This document shows positions 4,586 through 37,279 of a DNA stretch of 64,000 bases, piece after piece. Position numbers and translations under genes: made by a program. The notes beneath the pieces are model-generated. The model did no database searches, had not been told where the DNA came from, and worked only from the letters and a program-made list of their open reading frames with translations. Position 1 is the first letter of the stretch. The number at the start of each line of letters is the position of its first letter. The stretch covers positions 310,001-374,000 of the forward strand of contig NZ_CP145608.1 of the NCBI RefSeq assembly GCF_036884295.1, in the 5' to 3' direction. Source of the stretch: Brochothrix thermosphacta DSM 20171 = FSL F6-1036 (lineage in GTDB: Bacteria > Bacillota > Bacilli > Lactobacillales > Listeriaceae).

Positions 4586-7329
4586 GTGTTTACTTTTTTG
4601 ACAATAAACAGCAATTAATTAAAATCAAGAACAGCAGAACGTTATTACAATGTTTACAAGAAAAAGAAATCACAAGCGATAAATCAGACTTGATGAAAGA
4701 TATATTGACTGTTAGCTGTTTGCATGATGCGGAGCTTGAACAGTGCCATTTCATGGCTGTTAGAGAAAGCAAGGGCATTTACTCGCTTTATAAAATTTTA
4801 GAAGAAGAAATTGATTCTGAAATAATGAACTTTAAAGGCGTCAACTTCGGAGCTGAGGAGCTTAACAATTACGTTGTATCTGATGCACGTCCAGTTAAGA
4901 AAACAATCACAGATATAGTTAAGCAAATTTTAACTTACACTGATGACGAGTGGCTGATGACTGGTGGTGTCGATAAAATAGGTAGTGCTAATTTTTATTA
5001 TACTTCGGTTAAAGAAGCTTTGAAAATAGTGCAACAATTAGGTTGTGAATTACTGTTCTTTTGTGACATTGATGGCTCTGGAATATCCAGTAAATGGGTA
5101 GAAGTGAGAGAGAGAATCGGAAAAGAAAGTGATGATCGTTTTGAAGTAGGCTCTACAGCTATAAAAGTCGTTAAAACAAAAGACCGAACCAATATCGTTA
5201 CTAGCCTAGTTGGTCGAGGAAAAGGCGAAGAAGTTGGCGATGGTTACGGCAGACGATTACAATTCGATACAGTCGAGTGGACAAAGCCTGTGCCAAAGCC
5301 AAAAGGACAAACTTTCATTGAAATCAAAGAACTTACTGAACAATATGGCATCCCCACAAAAACTGGAAAGATGCGAAAGCGTGAACAAGTTGTTATTTTC
5401 GATGATATAGAGGATAAAAACGAATTGTTAAACGCAACGTATCAAACGTTATTAGATAATTCTCGTCCTTTAATTCAATTTTCTAGTGAAGTGATTGGTG
5501 CTAGCTCGATTGGCGATATAGTGACTATCCATGATTATGATAAAAACTATCATTATCAAACTCGTGTGTTTGCGATTAAAAACGACATCCTTAATAACAA
5601 AATCGAATCTAGTTTAGGCGACAATCTAAAAGGGTCGTCAGCATCTAATCAGTTATCAAAAGCAAGCAGCGGTATATCAGAACTAAAAAGCATGAAGATG
5701 AATTTTTACGATTCAACAGAAATCAGCAAATGGCAAAGCGATATTATTCGTGGAGCAAAAGGCGGTTCAGTGCTATTGATGTCACCGTGGGACACGAATA
5801 AAGGGAAATCAAGAGAGCCTTATCAGATGGTTATCATGAACAAAGGTAGCCTAAAAGAATCCAATCACTTCTTAGTGATGAACTCGGAGGGCATCGGTTT
5901 TATTAATGGCGATTTTGATAAAGATAAATTTGAAACAGCTTGGACAATCGACGGTACTTTTAATGCTAAATTTATACGCGCTGGTGTGTTAAGCGGTATT
6001 TTGATTAAAGGTAATATTATAAAATCTTCTGATGAAGGTGATTTCCAAATTGTGTTAGATGGAGGCGAACTTACTTTTGAAAAGAAATACGACAGCGAAG
6101 ATATTGACGATCAGCACGGCCATCCTATGCTTACTATGAAAGCACTATACACAGACGATAAGCTTAACGGTATCTCTATGGTGCAAATACCTAACTACTC
6201 TTTCGGCATAAATTCGGGAGGTTTGATGGTATCGAAACCAGTAATTGAAATACCTAAAGAGTCAACGATTGACAGTAGAAAGTTGAATCTTTTTGGAGAA
6301 GTTAGAGTGGTAGGTGACTTTTATGTCAACGGTGTAAAAATTGACAGCAACGGTGGAAGTGGCGGTAGTGGTGGCGGCTCTGGTGGCTGGAATGGTCAAT
6401 ATCCACCTGAGATAACAAGTGACGTTGATAAGCGAGCTTGGGCTATTTGGAGTACGTTAAGAGGGCATGACTACAGTAAAGCGGCATCTGCAGCTATACT
6501 CGGAAATATACAAGGTGAATCGGGTCCTCAAATGAACCCCGACACAGAACAAGTCGGAGGTCCTGCGTACGGACTTGTTCAGTGGGATGGTTCAGCTTAT
6601 CCACTTGTTGGTCAACCGACCTACAATGGTCGTGAATACGTTCAAAGGCTGATGAAAGCTGCAAATATCGCTGACGATTACAGAACAATTGGGTCGCAAG
6701 TTAATCTAATTGAATGGAGCATGAAAAACGGTCAGTGGATAGGCGCAGTAGAACCTAAAACAGTCAGCGGATTCAAGGCTTCAACATCGCCACGAACAGC
6801 AGCAAGGGCATTTCTTTATAACTTTGAAAGACCTGCAACAGGTCATCCCGAACGTGAAGATTATGCGCAGACTTGGTATGACAAGTTTAAGGATTTAAAA
6901 CAGCCTGGTGGAAAATACGGCATGCCAGTTGGGCCAGGTTATCAAATAACTTCGTGGTTTGGTAATCGTGACAATCCGAAAGACCCAGGTAACCTAGAAA
7001 CACATAAAGGCATGGACTTCTCAGATAAAGTCGGAAGCCCTATTTTTGCGGTTGAAAACGGGGAAGTTATCGCTTCATTACCAACAGCATCAAGTGGTGG
7101 TTTTGGTGAATATATTGTTATCAAACATTCAGACGGTAACTTTACAGGTTACGCACACATGACGTTGAGAATGGCAAGTCAAGGTGCTAAAGTATCGAAA
7201 GGTCAACAAATTGGGACTATGGGTTCTACAGGTGAATCAACAGGGTCTCATCTGCATTTTAGTGTAGGCGATGGCCTTTTTGGTAACTATCAAGACCCAG
7301 CTCCTTATTTAGGATTGAAAAGGCCTTAA
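4582..7329 (+). CDS. Tail-associated lysin Tal with lysozyme-like and M23 peptidase domains
   Basis: 915 residues. The N-terminal 380 residues match the gp18/endopeptidase-tail hub fold that closes the tail tip. A Gly/Ser linker (about 590-603) leads to a phage tail lysozyme-like domain (about 605-770) with a likely catalytic Glu at 646 in NIQGESG. The C-terminal M23 (LytM-type) domain (about 780-912) has HKGMD (His808, Asp812), His859 and HLH (890-892), so all zinc and catalytic residues are present. The protein probably opens peptidoglycan locally during DNA injection, cutting both glycan and peptide. The two-hydrolase architecture is more elaborate than many Tal proteins. Overlaps dit by 4 nt. 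Confidence 0.85.
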   Translation: MSVYFFDNKQQLIKIKNSRTLLQCLQEKEITSDKSDLMKDILTVSCLHDAELEQCHFMAVRESKGIYSLYKILEEEIDSEIMNFKGVNFGAEELNNYVVSDARPVKKTITDIVKQILTYTDDEWLMTGGVDKIGSANFYYTSVKEALKIVQQLGCELLFFCDIDGSGISSKWVEVRERIGKESDDRFEVGSTAIKVVKTKDRTNIVTSLVGRGKGEEVGDGYGRRLQFDTVEWTKPVPKPKGQTFIEIKELTEQYGIPTKTGKMRKREQVVIFDDIEDKNELLNATYQTLLDNSRPLIQFSSEVIGASSIGDIVTIHDYDKNYHYQTRVFAIKNDILNNKIESSLGDNLKGSSASNQLSKASSGISELKSMKMNFYDSTEISKWQSDIIRGAKGGSVLLMSPWDTNKGKSREPYQMVIMNKGSLKESNHFLVMNSEGIGFINGDFDKDKFETAWTIDGTFNAKFIRAGVLSGILIKGNIIKSSDEGDFQIVLDGGELTFEKKYDSEDIDDQHGHPMLTMKALYTDDKLNGISMVQIPNYSFGINSGGLMVSKPVIEIPKESTIDSRKLNLFGEVRVVGDFYVNGVKIDSNGGSGGSGGGSGGWNGQYPPEITSDVDKRAWAIWSTLRGHDYSKAASAAILGNIQGESGPQMNPDTEQVGGPAYGLVQWDGSAYPLVGQPTYNGREYVQRLMKAANIADDYRTIGSQVNLIEWSMKNGQWIGAVEPKTVSGFKASTSPRTAARAFLYNFERPATGHPEREDYAQTWYDKFKDLKQPGGKYGMPVGPGYQITSWFGNRDNPKDPGNLETHKGMDFSDKVGSPIFAVENGEVIASLPTASSGGFGEYIVIKHSDGNFTGYAHMTLRMASQGAKVSKGQQIGTMGSTGESTGSHLHFSVGDGLFGNYQDPAPYLGLKRP

Positions 7330-7349: not shown

Positions 7350-9968
7350 ATGGTTGAATTAGATAAATATTTACCTGTTAATCGTGAGGAAGCTTTTCGC
7401 AATGGAGTAAATAAAAATTTCGCGAAAATAGAACAAGGATTTAGTCAACGCGATGCAGTGATGGCTAATCACCAAACAAGTCAGAAAAGAGCGCATGATT
7501 CCGGGCAAATTACGCATGACGGATGGACCATTGAAAAAGAAATGAAATATCGTGCTGCACAAGTAAAAAATCTTGTGGTTGGAGCAAACGGTGACGGTAT
7601 AGCTGAGACGAAAGATGCGCGAGTTGATTTATATGCAGAAATACATGCAACTTTATCAGAAAGGCTTTTATCAGACTTTAAACGATTAACGAAAAGATTA
7701 GACCGTGTTGTACATGTCGATGATTTTGGAGCTGTAGCAGACGGTAAATCTGATAGCACACAAGCGTTTAAAGATGCGCTATCTGGCGGTAACGTTAGAG
7801 TGCATATCGGCGCAGGGACATATATTGTTAACGAAAGTGTCAAAATGCCCTCTTATAGCCAATTGATTGGACAAGGACAAGGTATTTCAGAAATCAAGTT
7901 ATCTGATGATGCACCGGCAAAAGAATTGGTAATTGTTAACGCTGACTTCAAAACACGAAAAAATACGCATATACACATTCGGGATTTAACAGTAAATGGT
8001 AACAAAAAAAGACAAGGTGGAGTTTTAGCGCCTGCGGGCGGCTCTAAGTCGTCAGGTATACGTTTAGCAGGTGTTAGGTATGGATACATTGAAAATGTAG
8101 ATACAAAAGCAACGCTTTTACACGGTATTGACATAACAAACGCAACAGTTGACGAAGAATATCCTTATACAGGCGATGGCACTCGTGGCAACGATACAGG
8201 AAGTCAATATATTTGGATTGATAATTGTACAGCTACAGATTTCGGTGATGACGGCATTACAACTCACCATAGCGACTATTTGCAAATCACTAACTGTTAT
8301 TCCCATCATCCCACACTAAACGATGACGGTACTGGACGAGGCAATAACAATGGATTCGAAATTGACGACGGTAGTCGCTATGTATTCTTAGCTAACAATA
8401 AATCGGAAGAATGCTTTGGTGGACTTGAAATTAAAGGACACGCAGATATTAGTGCTGCACAAGGTATATTTGTTAACGGTCATACATCTATTAGAGATAA
8501 TCGTTCGTATAATTTCCGACATATCGGTCACCATTCTGCGACAGATGAAGAAAGTAAAACAGCGTACGACATCGTAGCTAAAAACATAGTATCTCTTTAT
8601 CCTTACGAAAATAATGTTTATCAAGGTTCCAAGTCACGCGCTTTAGTTGTAAGTGCATATAAAAATGTAGTAATTGATGGCTTTACTGCGATTGGTGATA
8701 AAACACATTCGGACGATCAACCTGTTATCGCCTTTCAATACCGTTCTGAAAATATTACGTTTACGAACGTTAATATTCGAGGATTTGTCAATGCATCAGA
8801 AGATATAAGCATCATTGGCGGTGGTAATAGACCTGCAGGTGTCACGCTATCTAATATCAATATTTATAAATCGGCAAAAATTGGTATAAGCAATGGTTCT
8901 AGCATTTACGATACTAAAATTTCTGGTGCAAGTCTTGTTGGAAATGGAGGTTTAGCGATTGTAAGTTATAACAACACATTACAAATTATCGCTGTTACAC
9001 AGTCGGGATACGAAACAGCAGCAAAAATAGCAGGTCGTGATTACGCTTATATGCCTACAGTGGTAAAGGGTGGTTTTTCCGCAGCGAGTACATCCGCTGG
9101 TTCGCTTCATGAAACTGCGGCAGTGATAGCATCTACAGGCGCATCATATGCTCATGACACAAAAACTTGGCTTTTGGGTGTTTCGGATGGCGCTAACGCG
9201 TATGGCTCACGTGCAGGGATAATAAACTCATTAAACAGCGAAACAGAAAAAGACGGTTATGCTCAACTTGTTTTTAACTCAAACGGAGTTAAAGCGCCAG
9301 GGAATTATCAGGCAGTTGGCGGATATGGAGAAGGAGAAGCATCCACATCCAATGTTAAAATCAATCTCAACACTTTTAACGGAAATATTAAATCAGCAGG
9401 AACAGTCACAGGGTCATCGTCATTTGCTGATTACGGCGAATATTTCGAGAGCCTTTCGGGTGAATCGATTCCAAATGGAACAGTAGTAGCATTATCAGGT
9501 CGTTATATCGTGCCAGCGGAAAAAGGAGATAAACCGCTAGGTGTAATTTCTGGTACAGCTGGCATCGTTTTGGGTGAAAATACTTATCACCACAAAGGCA
9601 AATATCTAAAAGATGATTTTGGCGTTACATTGTATGAATATAGAGATATTGTGGAAAATCATACAGATGAAAATGGTGATGCTTTTGAAAACAAAGTCAC
9701 TCGTTGCATGCCAGTTGAAAATCCAGATTATGATAGCGACCTGAAAGAATCATATGCGTCTCGTTCGGAACGTCAAGAATGGAACGTGGTTGGCTTGTTA
9801 GGTCAAGTCTATGTGCGTATTGACAACACTGTAGAATCAGGTGATAGTTTAGATTTTGAAAAAGGGCGCGCGACGAAAAGTGATAACGGACATTGGCAAG
9901 TAATGAGCATCACAACACCTTTTGAACTTTCAAAAGGATACGGCGTTGCGTTAGTTATTGTTAAATAA
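7350..9968 (+). CDS. Tail spike: beta-helix (pectate-lyase-like) with C-terminal Peptidase_G2 domain
   Basis: 872 residues. The first 120 residues form an adaptor region with VDARVDLY-like sequence known from baseplate-binding ends. DDFGAVADGKSDST (about 128-141) begins a right-handed beta-helix of the pectate lyase superfamily, reaching roughly residue 620. From about 690 the sequence FADYGEYFE starts a domain resembling Peptidase_G2, the self-cleaving trimerisation chaperone of phi29 gp12. The spike likely binds or degrades a wall polysaccharide. Cleavage is inferred from the family. It is separated from tal by 20 nt and has its own Shine-Dalgarno. Confidence 0.8.
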   Translation: MVELDKYLPVNREEAFRNGVNKNFAKIEQGFSQRDAVMANHQTSQKRAHDSGQITHDGWTIEKEMKYRAAQVKNLVVGANGDGIAETKDARVDLYAEIHATLSERLLSDFKRLTKRLDRVVHVDDFGAVADGKSDSTQAFKDALSGGNVRVHIGAGTYIVNESVKMPSYSQLIGQGQGISEIKLSDDAPAKELVIVNADFKTRKNTHIHIRDLTVNGNKKRQGGVLAPAGGSKSSGIRLAGVRYGYIENVDTKATLLHGIDITNATVDEEYPYTGDGTRGNDTGSQYIWIDNCTATDFGDDGITTHHSDYLQITNCYSHHPTLNDDGTGRGNNNGFEIDDGSRYVFLANNKSEECFGGLEIKGHADISAAQGIFVNGHTSIRDNRSYNFRHIGHHSATDEESKTAYDIVAKNIVSLYPYENNVYQGSKSRALVVSAYKNVVIDGFTAIGDKTHSDDQPVIAFQYRSENITFTNVNIRGFVNASEDISIIGGGNRPAGVTLSNINIYKSAKIGISNGSSIYDTKISGASLVGNGGLAIVSYNNTLQIIAVTQSGYETAAKIAGRDYAYMPTVVKGGFSAASTSAGSLHETAAVIASTGASYAHDTKTWLLGVSDGANAYGSRAGIINSLNSETEKDGYAQLVFNSNGVKAPGNYQAVGGYGEGEASTSNVKINLNTFNGNIKSAGTVTGSSSFADYGEYFESLSGESIPNGTVVALSGRYIVPAEKGDKPLGVISGTAGIVLGENTYHHKGKYLKDDFGVTLYEYRDIVENHTDENGDAFENKVTRCMPVENPDYDSDLKESYASRSERQEWNVVGLLGQVYVRIDNTVESGDSLDFEKGRATKSDNGHWQVMSITTPFELSKGYGVALVIVK

Positions 9969-25995: not shown

Positions 25996-26652
25996 GTGCA
26001 GTACGTTGAAGAGGGTGTGAACCTGTTTGCGAGGAGCAACACGTTATACTTTAATAATGGGAACAAGCTCTATAAAAAAACTAATCAAAGACCTGTAGAA
26101 CTTATTAACGATGAAAATTACATCGCAGCAAAGTTTGGGGAAGCTTGGATTGCTGTGTTTGAAGTGATAGAAAAAAAGAATGAAAATTGGTTAGATGTTC
26201 ACGCACAGTTTTATGATGATAAGCTGTTAGTTGCGATGCCCTTTCCAACAAAAGAAATCTACTTGTTTGATAAGTTAGGCCTTATTGTAACACACCATTT
26301 TTTAGAGGAGCCCATCTCGGCTATCGATATCAATAAACGCACAAAAGAAATTATAACATTGAGTGATGATGGCAGCCTACTTTCTTATTATAGCTATGAA
26401 AATAATGTGTTGGTATTGGTTAAACAACTGCAATTAAAAGTGCAATACACACAAATGTGTTATTGCCATAAAGGCATTTTACTTGTTAATACTTCTGAAC
26501 AAAAAGTTATTCTTTGTAATGAAGAAACAGAGTCAGATTGGTTGAAGTTTGAAGGTAAAATATTTGATATTATTAGTTTGGATAAACCTGTATTTTATGG
26601 GATGTTTTTAGGTGGTATTTATCAAATTGAACCAGCAGAACTTATTGTATAA
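25996..26652 (+). CDS. Uncharacterised cytoplasmic protein
   Basis: 218 residues from GTG 25996, chosen because AAGGGGGA lies about eight nt upstream; the frame opens earlier at 25963. There is no signal peptide or membrane segment. The sequence consists of short strands (LYFNNGNKLYKK, LLSYYSYENNVLVL), suggesting a small beta-propeller or sandwich. I do not recognise it. It is convergent with the LRR gene and shares with it a 26-bp perfect inverted repeat that probably acts as a two-way terminator. Confidence 0.65.
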   Translation: MQYVEEGVNLFARSNTLYFNNGNKLYKKTNQRPVELINDENYIAAKFGEAWIAVFEVIEKKNENWLDVHAQFYDDKLLVAMPFPTKEIYLFDKLGLIVTHHFLEEPISAIDINKRTKEIITLSDDGSLLSYYSYENNVLVLVKQLQLKVQYTQMCYCHKGILLVNTSEQKVILCNEETESDWLKFEGKIFDIISLDKPVFYGMFLGGIYQIEPAELIV

Positions 26653-26666
26653 TAAAGAAGAGCAGA

Positions 26667-26728
26667 TTAATCTAAACAATAAAAAACCACAAGATTATTA
26701 TTTTGTGGTTTTTTATTGTTTAGATTAA
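26667..26728. terminator. Bidirectional terminator with 26-bp perfect arms
   Basis: Arms 26667-26692 and 26703-26728 are exact reverse complements around a 10-nt loop, including A and T tracts usable on both strands. It lies between two convergent genes. Confidence 0.8.
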
Positions 26729-26732
26729 CATT

Positions 26733-27176
26733 TCAGGAGAAATAATAATGAGAGTTTTTAAATGCCTGTGGGTGAATCTTTTTTAGATTTGTCAGTTTGA
26801 CTAATTCTAATGATAAGGTGTTTGCAAAAGACCATGCCCCAATTTCTTTGACATTTTGTAGTTTGATGAGGTGTAGTTTTTTTGCATTATTAAATGCATA
26901 AGGTGGTATATTTGTTATATCTGATGTAATTAATATTTCTAAGCTATTCCAGCAGGAATAATTTAATACATTGTTTGATATTGAGAAGCTATTAGGTCCT
27001 TCAATAGTGAGATGTTTTATACTATTGGTGCCTTTATCGATAATGGAATCTAATGCTCCGATGAATTCTTGGAAGGTAATTTTTTCTAGGATACGAACAA
27101 TAACATAAACCTTATTATTTTTATTGCTAAATGATGAAATACAGAACTTTTCATTGTAAGTATTTTCGTTACACAT
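26733..27176 (-). CDS. Leucine-rich-repeat (BspA-like) protein
   Basis: 147 residues with AGGTGT upstream of ATG 27176. The C-terminal half contains consecutive LRR_5/BspA-type units: ITNIPPYAFNNAKKLHLIKL, then VKEIGAWSFANTLSLELVKL, then LKKIHPQAF. The N-terminal half is not recognisable. No signal peptide is seen, which is odd for BspA-like proteins since most are on the surface. It may be cytoplasmic or a fragment of a larger ancestor. It is divergent from the Mga-like regulator gene. Confidence 0.65.
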   Translation of the reverse strand: MCNENTYNEKFCISSFSNKNNKVYVIVRILEKITFQEFIGALDSIIDKGTNSIKHLTIEGPNSFSISNNVLNYSCWNSLEILITSDITNIPPYAFNNAKKLHLIKLQNVKEIGAWSFANTLSLELVKLTNLKKIHPQAFKNSHYYFS

Positions 27177-27320
27177 ACTATTAATACACCTCCATAACTG
27201 TTTATATAGTGTTTTCGTTACTACGCTGTAATAAACTACTTGTTTATTTTAAATGAAATAATTTTTTAAAAAACATTTTTTTTTTAGAAAATAATAAAAT
27301 AAAAGAAGAATGATAAAAAT

Positions 27321-27349
27321 TTGTACTTTAATAAAAAGAATGCTAAAAT
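27321..27349 (+). promoter_or_regulatory. Promoter of the Mga-like regulator gene
   Basis: TTGTAC (27321-27326), 17-nt spacer, TAAAAT (27344-27349) with an extended TGC just before the -10. The start codon is 40 nt downstream. Confidence 0.6.
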
Positions 27350-27388
27350 TCCATACGGATAGAAAATAACGTAAGAGGAGAGAATTTG

Positions 27389-28699
27389 ATGATAAATATG
27401 CATGATTTTTTAGAAACAAATGATCGTAATAAATTATATTTAATACATTTTCTAGAAGCAGATATGAATCATTACTTTCCGATAGATTCGTTAATGAAAA
27501 ACTTGGGTATATCAAGATTTAAAGTTGAAAATTTGATTGAGGAATTAAATGTTGAATTAGCTGAACTCAAATTAAATAAACTTGAAATTATTAACATTCA
27601 TTTTGTAACAGCAACCAATATCAACGAAGAAACTATTATACGTTTGAGAAGAAGTTATGTGAGAAAATCATACTATTTCTGTTTGTTTGAGGAATTACTT
27701 TATAGGAAGACAAGTCTAGCAGAATTTGCAGAGAAGTTTTTTATAAGTGAATCAAAAGCATATGATGTTAAAAAGAAATTATCTAGTATGTTAAAACCGT
27801 TATCTATATCAATAAAAAATGGACAGATACAAGGTGATGAGGAAAAAATCAGACTGCTTTATTTTGATGTATATTACTTTTTCTTTAATGGATGCAAAGA
27901 TATATTTAAAGTCAGAATAGATGAAATTAAAGAACATGAAGAGATTATTTCAAATTTAAAAGGGAGTATACCTTTAAGTCAGGAAGAAAAGATATATATT
28001 TTCATGAGGATTATTAATAAAAGGATTAAGAATGAAAACTATGTTGAAATCTCCTCTACAGATTTCAATAGTGAAAATGATACTTTAAAAGCTTATCAAA
28101 AATACATTCCTATGAAAGATAAGGATATAAAAATACAAGAAACACTTTATTTTTCACGGTTTTTATATGCTGAAAACTTCATACCGATTGAAGATACTGA
28201 TATAGGTAAAGCAAATATACGCTTAGTTAATAAGATAGGTACAGATTTTTCTGAAAAAATAGTGAGAGAATTGTTGCAGGAGATCAATGCAATTAATGAT
28301 AGTGAAATATTGCCTCAGTTAATGGCGAATATCAATCGTATTAACTTTCGCTGGATATATTTTCAATATTCGACAAATACCTTTATAACGGATAACCAAT
28401 GGAAGTACTTTGAAGAAGTGTATCCAGAATATTTTGAGTTTGTTATTTCATTTATTGAAAAGGCGGCATTTATTAAATCTGAAAGTGCAAAAAAAACATT
28501 GTTTTATGATTATCTTTTTGCGATTATAACGATAGTACCAATCTCTTACCTTTCAAGAAGTATTAATATATGTATCGACTTTTCAAGAGGAAAAACTTAT
28601 ACTGACTATATATCAAATAATATTTTACAGTTTCAGTCAATGGACATAAATATTAGTACTAAACCTGATGATAAAACGGATTTATATATCAGATTATAA
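27389..28699 (+). CDS. Mga/AtxA-like transcriptional regulator
   Basis: 436 residues from ATG 27389, six nt after AGGAGAG. Two N-terminal helix-turn-helix regions are visible: about 24-45 (FPIDSLMKNLGISRFKVENLI) and about 102-122 (SLAEFAEKFFISESKAYDVKKK). The rest is helical and resembles the PRD-like and C-terminal regions of Mga-family activators, which turn on surface adhesin genes in streptococci and enterococci. It is immediately upstream of a small secreted protein and a large LPXTG adhesin, so it probably activates them. AT content is higher than in the glycolytic genes, fitting acquired DNA. Confidence 0.8.
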   Translation: MINMHDFLETNDRNKLYLIHFLEADMNHYFPIDSLMKNLGISRFKVENLIEELNVELAELKLNKLEIINIHFVTATNINEETIIRLRRSYVRKSYYFCLFEELLYRKTSLAEFAEKFFISESKAYDVKKKLSSMLKPLSISIKNGQIQGDEEKIRLLYFDVYYFFFNGCKDIFKVRIDEIKEHEEIISNLKGSIPLSQEEKIYIFMRIINKRIKNENYVEISSTDFNSENDTLKAYQKYIPMKDKDIKIQETLYFSRFLYAENFIPIEDTDIGKANIRLVNKIGTDFSEKIVRELLQEINAINDSEILPQLMANINRINFRWIYFQYSTNTFITDNQWKYFEEVYPEYFEFVISFIEKAAFIKSESAKKTLFYDYLFAIITIVPISYLSRSINICIDFSRGKTYTDYISNNILQFQSMDINISTKPDDKTDLYIRL

Positions 28700-28806
28700 T
28701 TCTGAGTTTGTATCTTGTAATCAAATAATATGGAAAGAGCCACCCACTAATAAAGATTGGAAGAATTTTGGGAATACGCTTGTATTTATACGAAGGGAGA
28801 AACAAC

Positions 28807-29112
28807 GTGAAAAAGCAAAATGAATTCATTGGTTTCACAATAATATTTTTGAGCGCCACGATTATTATGTTACCTCATTCGGTACAAGCTGCTGATACAT
28901 ATAGTGCGAATGATTCTATTAAAATTAATTTCAGGAATAAAAAAATGGTGAAAGAAAAAAAAAGCAAGCCAGATGACACACAAAAAAATTTCAAAAAAAT
29001 TGAGCAGCAATTAGCTATAATGCAAGGAGAAAAAATTGAAGATGATAATACTGATACGTATTTAGGTGGTTTTTTCTCTTCATTAGCCGGAACGGTTTTT
29101 TTTGCAGAATAA
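28807..29112 (+). CDS. Small secreted protein
   Basis: 101 residues from GTG 28807, supported by GAAGGGAG; the frame opens upstream at 28768 without a ribosome site. Residues 1-29 are a signal peptide (hydrophobic core IIFLSATIIMLP, cleavage after VQA). The mature part is short, Lys-rich, and predicted helical (about 55-80), ending in a hydrophobic GGFFSSLAGTVFF. There is no LPXTG. A terminator follows at 29137. It is of unknown family and lies between regulator and adhesin. Confidence 0.65.
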   Translation: MKKQNEFIGFTIIFLSATIIMLPHSVQAADTYSANDSIKINFRNKKMVKEKKSKPDDTQKNFKKIEQQLAIMQGEKIEDDNTDTYLGGFFSSLAGTVFFAE

Positions 29113-29136
29113 GTAAATAATATAAATTAAAGAAGG

Positions 29137-29172
29137 AAAAAACATGTTGCAGATACTGCGACATGTTTTTTT
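29137..29172 (+). terminator. Terminator after the small secreted protein
   Basis: AAACATGT-TGCAG and CTGCG-ACATGTTT form a near-perfect stem around ATA, followed by a T tract. Confidence 0.8.
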
Positions 29173-31902
29173 GTTTTTTAAAAAAATAATAAAAAAATAA
29201 AAAGAAAAAAAAGAATATACTACGTTACACTAAATATTAGGGTATTAAGTTTATATACTGTTTTGATAGTTTAAGCTTAATTAAAGTATACAAATAATCG
29301 TTGTATGATTTTGAAAAATAAATTTAAGAATTTTGGAGGAAAGAATATGCATAAAATTAAAGAATCATTGACTAAACAACTCTTAATAATTGTGGCAGTG
29401 ATTGTTGCAATTAGCCAGATAGGAATTATTTCAGTTATTGCCGATGTAAATGAACCAACTAGTGATGTTCTCATTACATCTGAAAAAACAAACGTTGGAA
29501 TTGACGAAGTTTTTAAAGTGAATGTAAAAGGAGATGAAGTTGATCTTACCGATTTCAAAATCTCATATCCAAAATCATTGACACTAGTGAGTGAAAAAAA
29601 CATCAACAAAAAACATATTGAATACCAGTTTAAAGCTTCTACTGAAGGTGAATTTACAGTAAATGGATTACTAAAAGATAAAGAATTAGAAGGCGTAACA
29701 ATAAAGGTGAAAAATGAGAAAGAAGCAGAAAAGGCCAAAGAAGCAGATGCTACGCCTAAAGCTTCTTTAAATAAATCAGTTGTCGCGGAGAAAGATCCCA
29801 TCGACAAGGGAACTAAAAATGCAACATTAGAATATGATGTTAATTTAAGTGCGCAAAAAGATGTCGATTTTTCGTCAGGTGAAAATTATTTAGGGTTTCC
29901 GTATAAAGTTACAATAAACTCGACAGCAAATGCAACGAATACTCTTGCAGGTGTAAACTTAACTTTCAAGATTCCTTCGGGTTATAAGTTATCCTCAGAT
30001 GGCGAAAACTCAGGGATAGTTACAGGTCCTGATTCGATTGTAAAGGAGTATACAATCAATGACGACGGGACAATCAATATTGTGCTAAATGAGATTACTA
30101 AAACAATTGCTGAATTTACGATTGCGATTGTTCCCATCACGGATGCCGGTAGTGAAGCTAATATTCATGATAGATATGATGGTGAGATTCTTACTGGATC
30201 AATTGTAGGGTCAGAAACAGTGTCGGGTAAGGTACCACAATCAGAGCAACAAACAACATTACACGGCACAACAGATTATGCTGTTAATAAAACAGCAGCC
30301 ACTGCCCCAGGTTCAACGAATCGACTAGTCACCTATTCATTCAATGTTAATCGTGTAGGTTCTAATAAAGAAATTACATTACAAAATTTAAAATTAGAAG
30401 ATAACATCCCGGCAGGTGCAATTATTAAGAGTAGCAATAATTCGGGTGGTAAGTGGATCATAACAGGTGATCAAAATACAGGATGGAAAGCGATTTGGGA
30501 AAGGGACAAACAGTTTTACGGTGCAGGTAATTCCCTATCTTCACAAGATGGTGAAATACCATCACTAGTAGTGGAGTATCCTGAAGATAAATTTCCTGAT
30601 GATACAAGGCCACCTAAAAACATCGTAACGATGTCGGCTAATGATAATAACCCTGAGAGTACAGAAATAGTAGGGAAACCTAGTGAAGCACAAGGTCCAA
30701 TCTTATCCAGTGGTGAGGATGATTCTAGCGGTCTTGATAAAAAGATATTAACCAACACATGGTTATCAGGAAGTATTTATTCTAACTATGAGGTGAATGG
30801 TAGTTTTGTTGCAGATAAAAATTCGAAAAAAAGTGTTAAAAATATGACAATTGAAGACAGTATGGATCGTTTTGGGAACGGGGTTTTTTGGAGCCATTTT
30901 ATAATTTCAAATATAAATATACAGTTAAATACACCGATTGTAGAGGGTGATACAAAATTGACTGTGAGTTATAAAACAAATAAAAACGGCTGGAGAAACG
31001 CTAGTGATGCAAAAGCTAAATCGGTTTTAAAGATAGGTTTTCATGTTGTAGGGAGTCTTAATTATGCCCAAACGGACAAATCAGATTTACAGATTGATTT
31101 ACAACCGGGTGAAGTTTTAACTGGTTGGAAAGTATCGGTAGTAAATGAAAAAGATAAAGCTGAGAATGTACAACCGAAAATTATTGTAAACGGTATTTCT
31201 TCTTTTGCGAACATTTTTGATCAAACAATTGACCATAGCATTAAATCGATACAAAACACTGCTAGCCAAGAAGTTGAGTTTAAAGATGGTTCGATAAGCG
31301 AAGAAAAGACATCTGAAGCAAAAGTTAATTTACAACCCAATTTAAACTTAAATACGATTGTCAATGTCCCTTCTACATTAACAGTTGGAAAGACAAATAA
31401 TTTTACAGTTTACGCGAATAATCTAACACCAGAAGAAGATGTTGACGGTGCAATTATGAGGGTAGTTCTACCTGCAGGAGTAACTTTGGATTCTAGTAAG
31501 GGTGTTAGTGCAGCTGAAAAAAAATTAGGTGCACCATACAATATTGACGTTCCTCAACCAGGTAACGATATTGATATTACGACAGAAGTATTGCCAGCGA
31601 CGGCTGATTATAACGCATCTCGACAAGTTGTAGTGTTCAAGTTCAAAAAAGCATTAGCAACATTACAAAAAGCAGGTTCCGCATCAGATAGAAATATCGG
31701 GAATTCAGGCTTTAAGTATAACTTACCTGTTAATGTTTCTCAGGTTGCATATGATGCTTTTATTGAAAATAATCAAAAAGCGCCAATAGAAAGTTGGATT
31801 ACTACTGATTCCGAAAAATTCAAAGACTATTCGGTCGTTGCCTATGGAAGCCGAAATCATCAAGACATTCATGATTTTGATAAAAATAGAGACTCGATTG
31901 TA

Positions 31903-31905
31903 TGA
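31903..31905 (+). other. First in-frame TGA of the adhesin frame
   Basis: Codons SIV-TGA-DSKFSQV; the reading frame continues without shift for 100 codons to the next TGA. TGG to TGA is one transition away. The base after it is G. Confidence 0.9.
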
Positions 31906-32205
31906 GACAGTAAGTTTTCACAGGTGATTAGTGACGGAGGGTTGATATTATCTAAATCAGTTGAGGGCGCAGTTAACACTGGTTTTTCTGATCAAGCAAC
32001 CACTAGTAATGGCGAAAATGCAACCTGGAAATTACTTTTGAATAATACATTATCAACTCAAGTAGTTTCTCCTGTTATTTTCGATGATATTAGTAAACTA
32101 AATGGGAATTCCGATTTTATAACGAAGTTAACTGGACCAATAGAAGTTAGTAAGGGTGCAGTTGTAGAGTACTCTAAAGATGCCACATCTAGTAATAATG
32201 GTTCT

Positions 32206-32208
32206 TGA
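32206..32208 (+). other. Second in-frame TGA of the adhesin frame
   Basis: Codons NNGS-TGA-SSDWKEAK, again a natural Trp position and one transition from TGG. The following base is A. The frame then stays open to 35637. Confidence 0.9.
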
Positions 32209-32421
32209 AGTAGTGATTGGAAAGAGGCTAAATCTTTTAAAATCACTAAAAATGTATTGAATATTGGAGAAAAAATAGAAGCCTTTGTTCCAGTCACAAG
32301 TCCTATAAGTGCAAAACAAGGTGAGCTAACAATCAATACTGCTCAGGGTGAAGCTATTTTAAATGGTAATACGTTACCGTTCACTTCAAATGAGGCACAA
32401 ATTAATATAGTAGTCGATACA

Positions 32422-35400
32422 AACACTGTCGTGTTAAGCAAAACAGACGATACTACAAAGGAAAAATTACAAGGTGCAGTTTTTGACTTGCAAGATTCGA
32501 ACGGAAAAGTGTTGCAAAGTGGTTTAACAACAGATGATGAAGGCAAGATTACTGTTGATGAATTAGTTGTTGGAACATATCAATTTGTGGAAACCAAAGC
32601 TCCAACAGGTTATGAGTTGGATGCCACACCGATTAAGTTCGAGGTCAAAAAAGGCCAAACAGAAGTGGTACAAGTAAGCATGACAAACGAATTAACAAAA
32701 GGTGGTTTCGTATTAACGAAAACTGACGACAAAACAGGCGAAGCTTTACAAGGTGCTGCTTTTGAATTACAAGACACCGACGGAAAAGTATTACAAAGTG
32801 GTTTAACGACGGATGCTTCTGGTAAAATAGCTGTTTCTGATTTAACACCCGGCAACTATCAATTAGTCGAAACGAAAGCCCCAACAGGTTACGAGTTGGA
32901 TAGCACACCGATTAAATTTGAAGTTGAAAAAGGTCAAACAGAAGCTGTTCAAGTAAGCATGACGAACGAATTAACTAAAGGTGGTTTCGTATTAACTAAA
33001 ACTGACGATAAAACAGGCGAAGCTTTACAAGGTGCTGTTTTTGAATTACAAGACACCGACGGAAAAGTATTACAAAGTGGTTTAACGACGGATGCTTCTG
33101 GTAAAATAGCTGTTTCTGATTTAACACCCGGCAACTATCAATTAGTCGAAACGAAAGCCCCAACAGGTTACGAGTTGGATAGCACACCGATTAAATTTGA
33201 AGTTGAAAAAGGTCAAACAGAAGCTGTTCAAGTTTCGATGACAAATACATTAACAAAAGGTGGGTTTGTTTTAACAAAAACCGATGATAAAACAGGCGAA
33301 GCTTTACAAGGTGCTGTTTTTGAATTACAAGACACCGACGGAAAAGTCATTGAAAGTGGTTTAACGACGGATGCTCCAGGAAAAATAGCTGTTTCTGATT
33401 TAACACCCGGCAACTATCAATTAGTCGAAACGAAAGCCCCGACAGGTTATGAGTTGGATGCCACACCGATTAAATTTGAAGTTGAAAAAGGTCAAACAGA
33501 AGCTGTTCAAGTTTCGATGACAAATACATTAACAAAAGGTGGGTTTGTTTTAACAAAAACCGATGATAAAACAGGCGAAGCTTTACAAGGTGCTGTTTTT
33601 GAATTACAAGACACCGACGGAAAAGTCATTGAAAGTGGTTTAACGACGGATGCTTCAGGAAAAATAGCTGTTTCTGATTTAACACCCGGCAACTATCAGT
33701 TAGTAGAAACGAAAGCCCCAACAGGTTATGAGTTGGATAGCACACCGATTAAGGTCGAGGTTAAAAAAGGCCAAACAGAAGCTGTTCAAGTAAGCATGAC
33801 GAACGAATTAACTAAAGGTGGTTTCGTATTAACGAAAACTGACGATAAAACAGGTGAAGCTTTACAAGGTGCTGTTTTTGAATTACAAGATGCCGAAGGC
33901 AAAGTCATTGAAAGTGGTTTAACGACGGATGTTTCTGGTAAATTAGCAATCGATCAGTTAAAACCAGGCAACTATCAATTAGTAGAAACGAAAGCCCCAA
34001 CAGGTTATGAGTTGGATAGCACACCGATTAAGTTTGAGGTTAAAAAAGGTCAAACAGAAGCGGTACAAGTAAGCATGACGAACGAATTAACAAAAGGTGG
34101 CGTTATTTTAACGAAAACAGATAACGTATCAGGCGAAGCTTTACAAGGCGCAGTATTTGAATTACAAGATGTCGAAGGCAAAGTCATTGAAAGTGGTTTA
34201 ACGACGGATGTTTCTGGTAAAATAGCTGTTTCTGATTTAACACCCGGCAACTATCAATTAGTAGAAACAAAAGCCCCAACAGGTTACGAGTTGGATAGCA
34301 CACCGATTAAGGTCGAGGTTAAAAAAGGCCAAACAGAAGCTGTGCAAGTAAGCATGACAAATACATTAACAAAAGGTGGGTTTGTTTTAACAAAAACCGA
34401 TGATAAAACAGGCGAAGCTTTACAAGGTGCTGTTTTTGAATTACAAGACACCGACGGAAAAGTATTACAAAGTGGTTTAACGACGGATGCTTCAGGAAAA
34501 ATAGCTGTTTCTGATTTAACACCCGGCAACTATCAATTAGTCGAAACGAAAGCGCCAACAGGTTATGAGTTGGATAGCACACCGATTAAGTTTGAGGTTA
34601 AAAAAGGTCAGACAGAAGCTGTACAGTTAGCAATGACAAATGAGTTAAGTAAAGGTGATGTTATTCTAACAAAAACAGATAACGTATCAGGCGAAACTTT
34701 ACAAGGCGCAGTATTTGAATTACAAGATGCCGAAGACAAAGTCATTGAAAGTGGTTTAACGACCGATGTTTCTGGTAAATTAGCAATCGATCAGTTAAAA
34801 CCAGGCAACTATCAATTAGTCGAAACGAAAGCGCCAACAGGTTACGAGTTGGAAACCACACCGATTAAATTTGAAGTTAAAAAAGGTCAAACAAAAGCCG
34901 TGCAATTAGCAATGAAAAATGAGCTAAGCAAAGGTGGGTTTGTATTAACTAAAACCGATGATCAATCAGGTGAAGTTTTACAAGGTGCTGTTTTTGAATT
35001 ACAAGATGCCGAAGGCAAAGTCATTGAAAGTGGTTTAACGACCGATGTTTCAGGTAAATTAGCAATCGATCAGTTAAAACCCGGCAACTATCAATTAGTA
35101 GAAACCAAAGCGCCAACAGGTTACGAGTTGGAAACCACACCGATTAAATTTGAAGTTAAAAAAGGTCAAACAAAAGCCGTTCAATTAGCAATGACAAATG
35201 AGCTAAGCAAAGGTGGGTTTGTATTAACTAAAACCGATGATCAATCAGGTGAGGTATTACAAGGCGCAGTATTTGAATTACAAGATACTAATGGCAAAAA
35301 AGTTCAACGAAATTTAACCACGGATAGTGCTGGTAAAATAGCTGTTGCTAAATTAAAGCCAGGTAAGTATCAATTAATAGAAACAAAAGCACCTCAAGGT

Positions 35401-35490
35401 TATGAATTAGATGCTACTCCGGTGACATTTGAAGTTATGGGGAATCAAAAAGAAATAATTAAGGTAGCTAAGACAAATAAAGCGATAACA
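32422..35490 (+). repeat. Eleven tandem 279-bp Cna-B repeats
   Basis: Each 279-bp unit encodes 93 residues with the pattern VLTKTD (Lys of the isopeptide bond), LVETKAPTGYEL (E-box, catalytic Glu) and SMTNE (Asn). All eleven are exactly 279 bp with no indels, and inner copies are nearly identical at DNA level, implying recent amplification or gene conversion. The first and last units are the most divergent. Intramolecular Lys-Asn isopeptide bonds would make a stiff stalk. Confidence 0.92.
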
Positions 35491-35689
35491 AATGAAAAAG
35501 AGGTCGTTCCCCCAGTACCAAATAAAAAACTTCCTAGTACTGGTGATGAAAAAGAGTCTATGCCATACGCAGGTATCCTGCTTTCAGTCTTGTCTTTCGT
35601 ATTGTTATGGAAGAGACGTGTACAACATCGTCAATAAATAGGTAAGAAGATTTTTCGAAGATTCTTAAATCTAGCATCTATATTTATTA

Positions 35690-35728
35690 AAAAGTAGTAA
35701 GCCCAACAGGGTTTACTACTTTTTTTTA
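35690..35728 (+). terminator. Terminator of the adhesin gene
   Basis: AAGTAGTAAGCCC and the GGTTTACTACTT arm pair around a short loop, followed by eight or more T. Confidence 0.85.
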
Positions 35729-35755
35729 TGAAAATATCAGGGTGGAATGGTGCTG

Positions 35756-36130
35756 TCAAATAGTAATATAAGGAATGGTACTCTTAAGAGCATTAACAAA
35801 TGGATTGGTACTCGCTTTCGCTCCGTCCCATACTGGCCTTGTATGCTCATGTCTTCGCAACAATGTCAGCACCCATACTGTCCTTGTAAGCTCATAACTT
35901 CGCAACGATATTAGCACCCATACTGTTCTCGTAAAGCTCATAACTATTGATTGGTACTCAATTGCTAGAAGGAATGGTACTCGCTGTCGCTGCGTCCCAT
36001 ACTGGCCTTGTATGCTCATGTCTTCGCAACAATGTCAGCACCCATACTGTTCTCGTAAAGCGAATAAATTCGCAACGATATTAGCACCCATACTGTTCTC
36101 GTATAGCGAATAAATCCGCTACGATAACAA
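35756..36130 (-). repeat. Repeat cluster B, opposite orientation to cluster A
   Basis: About 375 bp. Read on the minus strand it starts with GTTATCGTAGCGG right behind the ybaK terminator, then alternates CGAGAACAGTATGGGTGC, palindromic GCGAATTTATTCGC and CGCAGCGACAGCGAGTACC. Several units are duplicated within it (a block at about 35790-35930 recurs at about 35975-36095). Open frames across it are repeat by-products. Confidence 0.8.
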
Positions 36131-36131
36131 C

Positions 36132-36157
36132 AAAAAAGCTGCACAGAAGTGCAGCTG
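36132..36157 (-). terminator. Terminator of ybaK
   Basis: AGCTGCAC and GTGCAGCT, 8 bp each, loop AGAA on the plus strand; on the minus strand the stem is followed by six T. It starts 27 nt after the ybaK stop. Confidence 0.85.
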
Positions 36158-36184
36158 TAAAAATTACGTATTTTAAAGTGAAAA

Positions 36185-36667
36185 TTAATTCATTATAAGG
36201 GATGCAGTCGTAGCAGCCGTAGCGTGCACTAAGTCGGGGCCTGACAAAATAATTTGTAAGCCACGTTTACCCGCAGAAACAGCGATTTTTTCTTTTTCAA
36301 GAATCGACTGATGCATAAAAGTAGGCAAGCTTTTTTTCATGGCGAGTGGAGAACAACCCCCTCGTATATAACCGGTAATAGGGAGTAATGTTTTCACTTC
36401 AATCATGTCCACGCGTTTATTACCACTGATACGGGCAAGTTGTTTTAAATCAATATGTTCATTAGCAGGGATACAGGCGACAAGATGCCCTGTTTTATCA
36501 CCGATTAATACAAGTGTTTTGAAAACAGCATCTGCTTCCATGCCGATTGACTCACTTGCATGAGTAGCATCAAGTTGTTCAGGATGCCATTCATAGCTAG
36601 TAATATCGTAAGTGACACTCAATTTGTCTAATTCACGCATTGCATTTGTTTTTTTGCTTTTTGCCAT
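36185..36667 (-). CDS. ybaK: Cys-tRNA(Pro) deacylase YbaK/EbsC
   Basis: 160 residues. The YbaK fold is recognisable from FKTLVLIGDK (about 49-58), the conserved Lys/Asp-rich middle and GYIRGGCSPLAMKK (about 98-111), the active-site loop. It hydrolyses Cys-tRNA(Pro) formed by prolyl-tRNA synthetase. The length matches the family (about 160). It follows yuzB and yuzD in the same direction with short gaps, and ends at a terminator and repeat cluster B. Confidence 0.92.
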   Translation of the reverse strand: MAKSKKTNAMRELDKLSVTYDITSYEWHPEQLDATHASESIGMEADAVFKTLVLIGDKTGHLVACIPANEHIDLKQLARISGNKRVDMIEVKTLLPITGYIRGGCSPLAMKKSLPTFMHQSILEKEKIAVSAGKRGLQIILSGPDLVHATAATTASLIMN

Positions 36668-36683
36668 CTGCTTCTGCCATCCT

Positions 36684-36932
36684 TTAATTTACTTTATCTA
36701 AAAAATCCTCATCATACAAATAAGTATAGATGTTGTGAATCAATTCGTCGGGTGTATCACCTTTAATTACTTCGCCTTCGACTAATGCGTAAGGGGAAGT
36801 TGCGCAGGTATCGCAATAAGTGAGACAGCTATAACTAACAACGTCTAAGCGGTCATCGTTTTCTAATTCTTGTAGTGCTTTTTCTGCGCCAGATAATAAA
36901 TTATTCACGCAAAATTCAATCAAGGGGTTCAT
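36684..36932 (-). CDS. yuzB: YuzB-like protein (DUF1450)
   Basis: 82 residues. The conserved Cys cluster FCVNNL and SCLTYCDTCATSPYALV (about 34-50) identifies the DUF1450/YuzB family, which has a thioredoxin-like ferredoxin fold with Cys pairs that may bind a cluster. Its function is not established. It abuts yuzD (ATG overlaps the stop of yuzD), so both are co-translated. Neighbours are iron-sulfur genes on the other strand. Confidence 0.88.
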   Translation of the reverse strand: MNPLIEFCVNNLLSGAEKALQELENDDRLDVVSYSCLTYCDTCATSPYALVEGEVIKGDTPDELIHNIYTYLYDEDFLDKVN

Positions 36933-37279
36933 TAAATCACATTCTCTTTCTTTCGGGAAACAGGCGTATAGCCGTTATCTTCCATATAGCGATATACTTT
37001 CTTTAAACGAGGTTGCCCTTCTGTTAATATCTCATTATCAACAACTACTACCGGATAAAATAAATCCTCTTCAATGATTTGATGGGCCATATTTAAATGA
37101 ATGTCATCTTCTGGAGGCGAATAAATATCGATATAGGTCACTGAAAATAGTTGGTCAGGAAACTTGCGTCCGATAGCAGCACGTAGCCACCCTTCAGTAT
37201 CCTTAGAAGAAGGCATGTTCACACAACTCGGGCATAGTATAGTAGCACCGTATACAAAAAATTCGACGTTTTTTTTCAT
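36932..37279 (-). CDS. yuzD: YuzD-like protein (DUF1462)
   Basis: 115 residues after AAAGGGGAC. An early CPSCVNMPSSK motif (about 17-27) with CxxC gives a thioredoxin-like redox site, followed by VVVVDNEIL (about 78-86). This is the DUF1462/YuzD family. It is paired with yuzB in Bacillus and Listeria and is divergent from yutI, suggesting roles in iron-sulfur or thiol chemistry; that is inference from context. Confidence 0.88.
   Translation of the reverse strand: MKKNVEFFVYGATILCPSCVNMPSSKDTEGWLRAAIGRKFPDQLFSVTYIDIYSPPEDDIHLNMAHQIIEEDLFYPVVVVDNEILTEGQPRLKKVYRYMEDNGYTPVSRKKENVI

What the first reader, a model, noticed from the sequence alone, without database searches (positions are those of the whole stretch)
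29347..35637. Adhesin frame broken twice by TGA, both at likely Trp positions
Apart from TGA at 31903 and 32206, 2096 codons are clean, with no frameshift and a full LPSTG anchor. Two independent TGG-to-TGA changes, and none elsewhere, is striking. It could be a young pseudogene, a phase or strain variant, or controlled UGA read-through giving a secreted short form and a rare anchored long form. Other Trp codons in the gene are normal TGG, so the code itself is not changed.
Basis: partly seen in the sequence, partly recalled or inferred. Interest (0 to 1): 0.7.

Follow-up and report, generated by a model that had tools for sequence, protein, structure and literature searches.

The report
Bacterial adhesin gene cut by stops
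A giant surface-adhesion gene of a bacterium, most likely a meat-spoilage Brochothrix, is interrupted by two in-frame UGA stops where relatives carry an aromatic residue, probably a recently switched-off gene; several other adhesin genes of the same genome are broken too, and three of the breaks have the same Trp-to-UGA look, which is curious but not proof of read-through.

Summary
Window 29347-35637 is one frame of 2096 codons plus TAA, with only TGA 31903 (codon 853) and TGA 32206 (codon 954) inside. Three full-length homologues were found. Opposite TGA1 they have TGG, TAT, TAT; opposite TGA2, TGG in 3 of 3.

Best reading: a recently inactivated accessory adhesin, yielding an 852-residue exported fragment without anchor. 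The upstream AcpB/EbpR/MafR-type regulator appears frameshifted near its end, and the sister species lacks the roughly 10-kb stretch. The same genome has four more broken surface proteins and a second such regulator split by TAA. So the lesions belong to a wider loss, with TAA and frame shifts as well as TGA.

Controlled read-through is not supported: no UCA tRNA among 86, open RF2 frame, sense codons in relatives. Ordinary UGA leakiness with Trp insertion is not excluded: 3 of 7 nonsense lesions counted are Trp-to-TGA (post hoc P 0.0001-0.010). No second strain could be compared, so recency and loss of constraint are inferred.

The parts
29335..29339 (+). GGAGG ribosome-binding motif of the adhesin
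   Evidence: read; 7 bases between it and ATG 29347
29347..31902 (+). adhesin segment 1: signal peptide (by eye) and N-terminal domains, 852 codons; the expected exported short product
   Evidence: no Pfam family at 0.001; weak DUF11, 18.9 bits under the 24.6 cut-off
31903..31905 (+). in-frame TGA 1 (codon 853), next base G; homologues have TGG, TAT, TAT
31906..32205 (+). adhesin segment 2, 100 codons
32206..32208 (+). in-frame TGA 2 (codon 954), next base A; homologues have TGG in 3 of 3
32212..32247 (+). possible stem-loop just after TGA 2 (z -2.1, 7 of 200 shuffles fold as well; z -1.2 in a window that includes the stop); nothing comparable after TGA 1
32209..35637 (+). adhesin segment 3, 1142 codons plus TAA
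32425..35478 (+). 11 SpaA (prealbumin-like) stretches; dN/dS about 0.20 in the 10 pairs of the five 93-residue units compared
35530..35544 (+). LPSTG sorting motif, followed by hydrophobic stretch and basic tail
27386..28699 (+). AcpB/EbpR/MafR-type (Mga) regulator, frame ends early (profile 1-425 of 481)
28650..28823 (+). probable missing end of the regulator in another frame (profile 446-476 of 481, E 0.032)
26382..36245 (.). accessory segment with regulator and adhesin; 354 bp at this place in the sister species G001
   Evidence: by another method, gives about 10.0 kb against about 540 bp

Best explanation
This is a recently inactivated accessory gene for a sortase-anchored SpaA-repeat adhesin. 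Two nonsense changes, at Trp codons, end translation in front of the repeats and the LPSTG anchor, so the main product should be an 852-residue exported fragment that cannot be anchored. The locus is decaying as a unit (its upstream Mga-type regulator also appears shifted out of frame near its end) and is one of several broken surface-protein genes in this genome. Shown: the two stops, the sense codons in relatives, the other lesions, the empty site in the sister species. Inferred: that the lesions are recent, that the ancestral codons were Trp, that anchoring is abolished, that selection for surface adhesins was relaxed or reversed in this strain, and the organism's name.
For: Relatives carry sense codons at both stops. 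Regulator next door: the profile match stops at 425 of 481 and a piece matching 446-476 lies in another frame. Same genome: adhesin B with a shift in an A run plus two TAA, lectin-type protein C with one TAA, collagen-binding-type adhesin D with one TGA, repeat-rich protein E with a frame change in its repeats. A, B, D and E are 4 of the 13 LPxTG-bearing genes examined. Control: of 29 same-frame run pairs in 400 kb (213 gene proxies) I judged one to be a split gene, and that one is a second regulator of the same family. Five repeat units after the stops show past constraint, which fits a young loss. Literature: PMC6180393 (section 14 read) reports an adhesin of B. [quoted passage not shown]
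Against: No frameshift or deletion in the adhesin itself, and both lesions look like Trp-to-TGA, the kind of nonsense change for which misreading by tRNA-Trp would insert the old residue. Three of seven nonsense lesions counted in this genome are Trp-to-TGA, more than simple models predict. No sister strain was available, so neither recency nor loss of constraint after the stops was measured. Non-surface breaks exist too (sensor kinase; transposase), so the link to surface genes is an enrichment by my count, not exclusive. The regulator's shift rests on a weak match (E 0.032). PMC6180393 also says that most other LPxTG proteins of CD 337 are well conserved in four strains, which does not speak for a general loss in the species.
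Confidence: 0.74

Rival explanations
1. Leaky UGA: the stops arose by mutation, but near-cognate tRNA-Trp reads some of them, so the cell makes mostly the exported short form and a trace of full-length anchored adhesin. No dedicated signal; Trp-to-UGA is tolerated because the misreading inserts Trp.
For: Trp positions in A and, by the three homologues with a DWG motif, in D. 3 of 7 nonsense lesions Trp-to-TGA, P 0.0001-0.010. PMC11126739 (passages; E. coli): TGA leakiest, mostly Trp inserted, more at low temperature, a G after the stop lowers termination; TGA1 and D are followed by G. PMC7918605 (passages): 6% read-through of a TGA in B. subtilis prfB+. Possible stem-loop after TGA2. Repeats after the stops dN/dS 0.20.
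Against: Two stops in series multiply the loss. TAA breaks and frame shifts in B, C, E are not explained. TGA2 is followed by A, not G. No unusual fold after TGA1 or D. 16 of 19 homologues read for D have Phe, not Trp. The excess is post hoc. Whether the repeats diverged before or after the stops arose is undecided.
Confidence: 0.14
2. Strain or phase variation: nonsense and frame shifts switch large adhesins off reversibly in a population or among strains, as a normal way of varying the surface.
For: [quoted passage not shown] Frame shifts in A runs in B and in the G163 homologue, and in the repeats of E. Five surface proteins affected in one genome.
Against: Point nonsense changes do not switch back at high rate (general knowledge); B carries three lesions, A two, which is decay rather than a switch. 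PMC6180393 finds most other LPxTG proteins well conserved in four strains. No strain series could be examined.
Confidence: 0.08
3. Sequencing or assembly error: the gene is intact in the organism.
For: Large repetitive gene; raw reads not available; A-run shifts in B and G163 are of an error-prone kind.
Against: Two substitutions of the same class outside the repeats, single-contig genome rated 99.96% complete, and one split gene by my judgement in 400 kb of control.
Confidence: 0.03
4. Recoding of UGA by a special tRNA (suppressor or selenocysteine).
For: None beyond the UGA codons.
Against: 86 tRNAs by RF00005 and 86 by ARAGORN at those places, none with a UCA anticodon; two tRNA-Trp, both CCA. 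RF2 open frame. No Rfam match at gathering score in 26000-37000. Three of three full-length relatives have sense codons.
Confidence: 0.01

Closest known systems
inlA premature-stop alleles of Listeria monocytogenes
   Same: LPXTG surface protein of a Listeriaceae food bacterium cut by point mutations or shifts before the anchor, giving a secreted unanchored fragment (PMC12427964, passages; abstract beginnings)
   Different: Different protein, no leucine-rich repeats matched; two stops in one allele; several adhesins hit in one genome; polymorphism among strains not shown here
SpaA-repeat giant adhesin of Enterococcus ureasiticus (L084/L087)
   Same: Same N-terminal region over about 880 residues (about 31% identity), SpaA-type repeats and sorting motif by eye
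   Different: Open throughout; three repeats by eye; neighbours are small exported-looking proteins, and no relative of the window's regulator lies in the fetched stretch
Leaky UGA read-through with Trp insertion in E. coli and B. subtilis
   Same: UGA at a Trp position, next base G at TGA1 (PMC11126739, PMC7918605, passages)
   Different: No product measured here; two stops in series; stop not shared by relatives
Truncated adhesin noted among Brochothrix thermosphacta strains (PMC6180393)
   Same: Cell-wall adhesin present in one strain, absent or truncated in others (section 14 read)
   Different: Gene not identified in the text, so it may or may not be this one; the window's species is itself inferred

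Membership tests
LPXTG sortase-anchored SpaA adhesin | N-terminal signal peptide | tested here: inconclusive
   Basic start and hydrophobic stretch by eye; no predictor run
LPXTG sortase-anchored SpaA adhesin | SpaA repeats | tested here: met
   PF17802, 11 stretches, 2.8e-258
LPXTG sortase-anchored SpaA adhesin | LPXTG, hydrophobic stretch, basic tail | tested here: met
   LPSTG; PF00746 21.8 bits over cut-off 20
LPXTG sortase-anchored SpaA adhesin | Sortase in the genome | tested here: met
   3 PF04203 genes, open frames 198, 225, 249 codons
LPXTG sortase-anchored SpaA adhesin | Binds a surface or ligand | not testable with these tools
   No assay; no solved structure matched by sequence and the fold prediction was poor (pLDDT 47.6)
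Pseudogene | Inactivating lesions where relatives are open | tested here: met
   2 TGA; sense codons at both places in 3 of 3 full-length homologues, though one of the three, G163, is itself shifted near its start
Pseudogene | Several kinds of lesion in the gene | tested here: not met
   Only nonsense changes; no frameshift in 2096 codons
Pseudogene | Loss of purifying selection after the lesion | not testable with these tools
   No second strain of the species in the collections searched
Programmed UGA read-through or recoding | Stop conserved in relatives | tested here: not met
   TGG or TAT in 3 of 3
Programmed UGA read-through or recoding | Stimulating RNA structure after the stop | tested here: inconclusive
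   TGA2 z -2.1 (7 of 200) and -1.2 with the stop included; TGA1 z 0.6 and 0.0; D z -0.7
Programmed UGA read-through or recoding | Decoding tRNA or weakened RF2 | tested here: not met
   No UCA tRNA among 86; prfB frame open, 364 codons; RF2 residues not inspected
inlA-type premature stop allele | Stop between signal peptide and anchor, giving an exported unanchored fragment | tested here: met
   Sequence only; protein not observed
inlA-type premature stop allele | Other strains carry the whole allele | not testable with these tools
   No other strain held; open homologues seen in Enterococcus only

The most novel reading that the evidence does not exclude
In a cold-growing bacterium, Trp-to-UGA changes in giant adhesins are preferentially kept because UGA is misread as Trp, more so in the cold; the stops then act as a translational dimmer that leaves a large exported short form and a trace of anchored long form, in at least two adhesins (A and D).
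Probability: 0.08. Interest if true: 0.8.

Novelty: new member of a known kind. Interest (0 to 1): 0.38.

Why it matters
The given break is not alone: this genome has, by separate lesions, broken several of its large surface proteins and two regulators of a family named after pilus and virulence-gene regulators. That parallels inlA truncation in food strains of Listeria, in the same family if the organism is Brochothrix, and could be tested across deposited strains. The excess of Trp-to-UGA breaks makes a specific, cheap test possible of whether UGA leakiness in the cold softens nonsense mutations.

Tried and rejected
Plasmid collection for the N-terminal half: no match. First genome-contig scan: nothing; the second, with alignment A1, gave one locus. 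These tools may leave out the window's own or very near genomes. Pfam and NCBIfam on the N-terminal pieces: nothing over cut-off. PDB by sequence: 0. Alignment A1 in 398 genomes of the phylum: own only. AlphaFold of residues 652-1032 with one relative: pLDDT 47.6, too poor to say whether the two Trp sites are buried; no fold search was made. Rfam in 26000-37000: 0 at gathering score. Search of plasmids and phages with a stretch around a transposase to name the organism: no match. The coding-score scan was swamped by what look like antisense frames; I judged its rows by eye. It did not list the L150 split, which one search did.

Considered and rejected: reassigned code, suppressor tRNA, selenocysteine; separate genes (the first ribosome-site-like start in segment 3 lies 93 codons in, which looked at the first 100 codons); chance frame (homologues run across both stops).

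Limits: the four weakest-placed anchor hits left out all have E 0.17 or more; 'whole' means an open frame with a start and a hydrophobic N-terminus by eye. The output was cut. The control sees only nonsense splits with both sides at least 60 codons and one at least 150; 8 of its 29 rows had no ribosome-site-like start after the stop and were judged by eye. The lesion count of 7 comes from genes looked at because they bear surface domains or came up in the control; the sensor kinase TAA and transposase TAA are left out, and adding them would make it 3 of 9. The organism is inferred: own genus has two genomes in a three-genus family, NCBI lists Brochothrix with two named species and Listeriaceae with three named genera, and a neighbouring MATE protein is nearest to Listeria (58.5%) among plasmid records; B. 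thermosphacta rather than its sister is my guess from genome size and completeness. Stanborough 2017 and Paoli 2017 on B. thermosphacta genomes were seen only as references. That B. thermosphacta grows in the cold is general knowledge plus the abstract of PMC6180393 (chilled meat).

Full report
OBSERVATION. The frame 29347-35637 is as described: 2096 codons and a terminal TAA, with TGA at 31903 and 32206 as the only internal stops. They are codons 853 and 954. Eleven TGG codons remain. The frame starts with a GGAGG motif and ATG, reads like a signal peptide (by eye), ends in LPSTG with an anchor over Pfam's cut-off, and carries 11 SpaA stretches.

TRP POSITIONS. A search of 395 genomes of the order gave 18 with a match at E 0.1 (own included), of which three others match nearly the whole query: G163 (same family), G136 and G242 (another family, one genus). 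Aligned over 883-889 columns at 30-32% identity, the codon opposite TGA1 is TGG in G163 and TAT in the two others; opposite TGA2 it is TGG in the three. Weaker domain relatives have Trp opposite TGA2 in the four copies (three loci) whose alignment I saw reach it; TGA1's residue is not kept in the weak matches seen. So TGA2 stands at a conserved Trp and TGA1 at an aromatic position, most simply Trp. Searching the family (36 genomes, 8 with a match) and the family of G136 (105 genomes, 4 with a match) with the alignment added only partial matches to these; 398 genomes of the phylum gave the own genome only.

THE LOCUS. Upstream, 27386-28699 encodes an AcpB/EbpR/MafR-type regulator (NF053736, 79 bits, under the 130 cut-off; Mga domain PF05043, 60 bits, over its cut-off). 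The match stops at profile position 425 of 481. In another frame, open from 28650 to 28823, the same family is the only NCBIfam hit at E 10 and covers 446-476 (E 0.032, weak; no Pfam hit). I read this as a frame shift near 28690. In the sister species G001 (85% complete) one contig carries both flanks with 354 bp between them, against 9.86 kb here (one search gives about 540 bp against 10.0 kb), so regulator plus adhesin are an accessory segment. Whether gained here or lost there is not decided. The 14-16 kb fetched around the homologues hold no relative of this regulator by tblastn (best E 0.71). The G163 homologue is itself out of frame near its 5' end, in a run of seven A; the two Enterococcus ones are open, the TAG that one search counts lying just in front of their GTG starts. 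So of four full-length members two are open.

THE REST OF THE GENOME. Of 20 anchor hits at E 1 I examined 16; 13 carry an LPxTG-like motif. Nine look whole by eye. Four are broken: A (this one); B, a 2842-codon run of a SpaA protein with a shift in an A run after the signal-peptide part and two TAA, one at a position that is Tyr in 17 of 17 other repeat copies counted and one at a position that is Gln in 8 of 17; D, with Big_8 and Collagen_bind domains and one TGA; E, with a leucine-rich start (by eye) and a frame change inside its repeats. A fifth, C, with L-type lectin, DUF11 and SpaA domains and not among the anchor hits, has one TAA. For D, 98 of 246 genomes of the order have a match; I read the 19 loci L112-L130 at its TGA: Trp in 3 and Phe in 16; the three with Trp share the DWG motif that D would have. 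A second AcpB/EbpR/MafR regulator is split by a TAA between profile positions 107 and 109. Three sortases have open frames, so a lost sortase does not explain the decay. As a control I took twenty 20-kb stretches (400 kb, 213 gene proxies): of 29 same-frame run pairs one is a split gene by my judgement, the regulator just named; I judged none to be a TGA split. Non-surface breaks do exist: a sensor kinase with a TAA and a shift and a transposase.

GENETIC CODE AND READ-THROUGH. RF00005 finds 86 tRNAs; ARAGORN on those places finds 86, none with a UCA anticodon, two tRNA-Trp with CCA. prfB is open. TGA ends 28 of 213 control proxies. RNA folding in the 80 bases that begin three bases after the stop: TGA1 z 0.6; TGA2 z -2.1 with 7 of 200 shuffles as good. 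For D the 80 bases right after the stop give z -0.7; a 100-base stretch at the G163 counterpart of TGA2 gives -0.9; windows that include the stop give 0.0 (TGA1) and -1.2 (TGA2). With six windows tried, the TGA2 hairpin is weak evidence. Under simple substitution models P(TGG-to-TGA) per nonsense change in A is 0.014-0.065; for at least 3 of 7 lesions (A2, B2, C1, D1, second regulator 1) it is 0.0001-0.010. This was computed after seeing the data, depends on which genes were looked at, and would weaken if the kinase and transposase were added. Papers seen as passages: PMC11126739: in E. coli TGA is the leakiest stop, Trp is mostly inserted, low temperature raises read-through, G after the stop lowers termination; PMC7918605: 6% read-through of a TGA in B. 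subtilis, and many in-frame stops in bacterial genes under purifying selection. These make leakiness plausible, not shown.

CONSTRAINT. Of the SpaA units after the stops I compared the five that are exactly 93 residues by my cut; over 10 pairs median dN is 0.049 and dS 0.354, summed ratio 0.20. The distal part was therefore translated and constrained while the repeats diverged, which fits a young loss and also fits residual function.

KNOWN PARALLELS. Premature stops in inlA of Listeria monocytogenes truncate an LPXTG protein before its anchor; the product is secreted and not anchored (PMC12427964 passages), and such alleles are common in food and food-plant strains (abstract beginnings of PMC11555985 and PMC5131979). 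PMC6180393 (section 14 read) says that one cell-wall adhesin of B. [quoted passage not shown] The text does not identify the adhesin gene. PMC6856214 (passages) repeats that strains differ in surface proteins or adhesins. The listings of my paper searches showed no description of these particular breaks; that covers open-licence PubMed Central papers only.

VERDICT. The simplest mechanism is inactivation of an accessory adhesin in a genome that is shedding several surface proteins. Controlled read-through is not supported. Uncontrolled UGA leakiness, perhaps favoured in the cold, is the most interesting reading that stays open. The decisive comparison, other strains, could not be run here.

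Noticed in passing
L052 minus strand, stops at 8074 and 4978 (G000:C1 about 2478.7-2488 kb): Second giant SpaA LPTTG adhesin, shifted in an A run after the signal-peptide part and cut by two in-frame TAA.
   Followed up: partly
L061 minus strand, 8837 (G000:C1:1920836): Collagen-binding-type LPHTG adhesin cut by one TGA that aligns with Trp (3) or Phe (16) in the 19 homologues read.
   Followed up: yes
L053 minus strand, 6205 (G000:C1:2222204): L-type lectin, DUF11 and SpaA surface protein, cut by one TAA between a putative adhesive domain and the lectin; small exported-looking proteins lie next to it.
   Followed up: partly
L057 minus strand, near 5643 (G000:C1:2499642): Repeat-rich LPETG protein with a leucine-rich start (by eye) whose frame changes inside the repeats.
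   Followed up: partly
L150 plus strand, 16780 (G000:C1:2376780): Second AcpB/EbpR/MafR-type regulator, split by a TAA at one profile position.
   Followed up: partly
L083 minus strand, near 9555 (genome G163): The closest homologue of the adhesin is out of frame near its 5' end in a run of seven A.
   Followed up: no
L054 plus strand, 1216 (G000:C1:691215): What reads like a sensor kinase next to a response regulator, broken by a TAA and a later shift (by eye).
   Followed up: no
L062 plus strand, 12242 (G000:C1:1902241): Transposase-like frame (by eye) split by a TAA.
   Followed up: no
window 28768-29112: Small frame with a signal-peptide look between regulator and adhesin; not searched against any library.
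   Followed up: no
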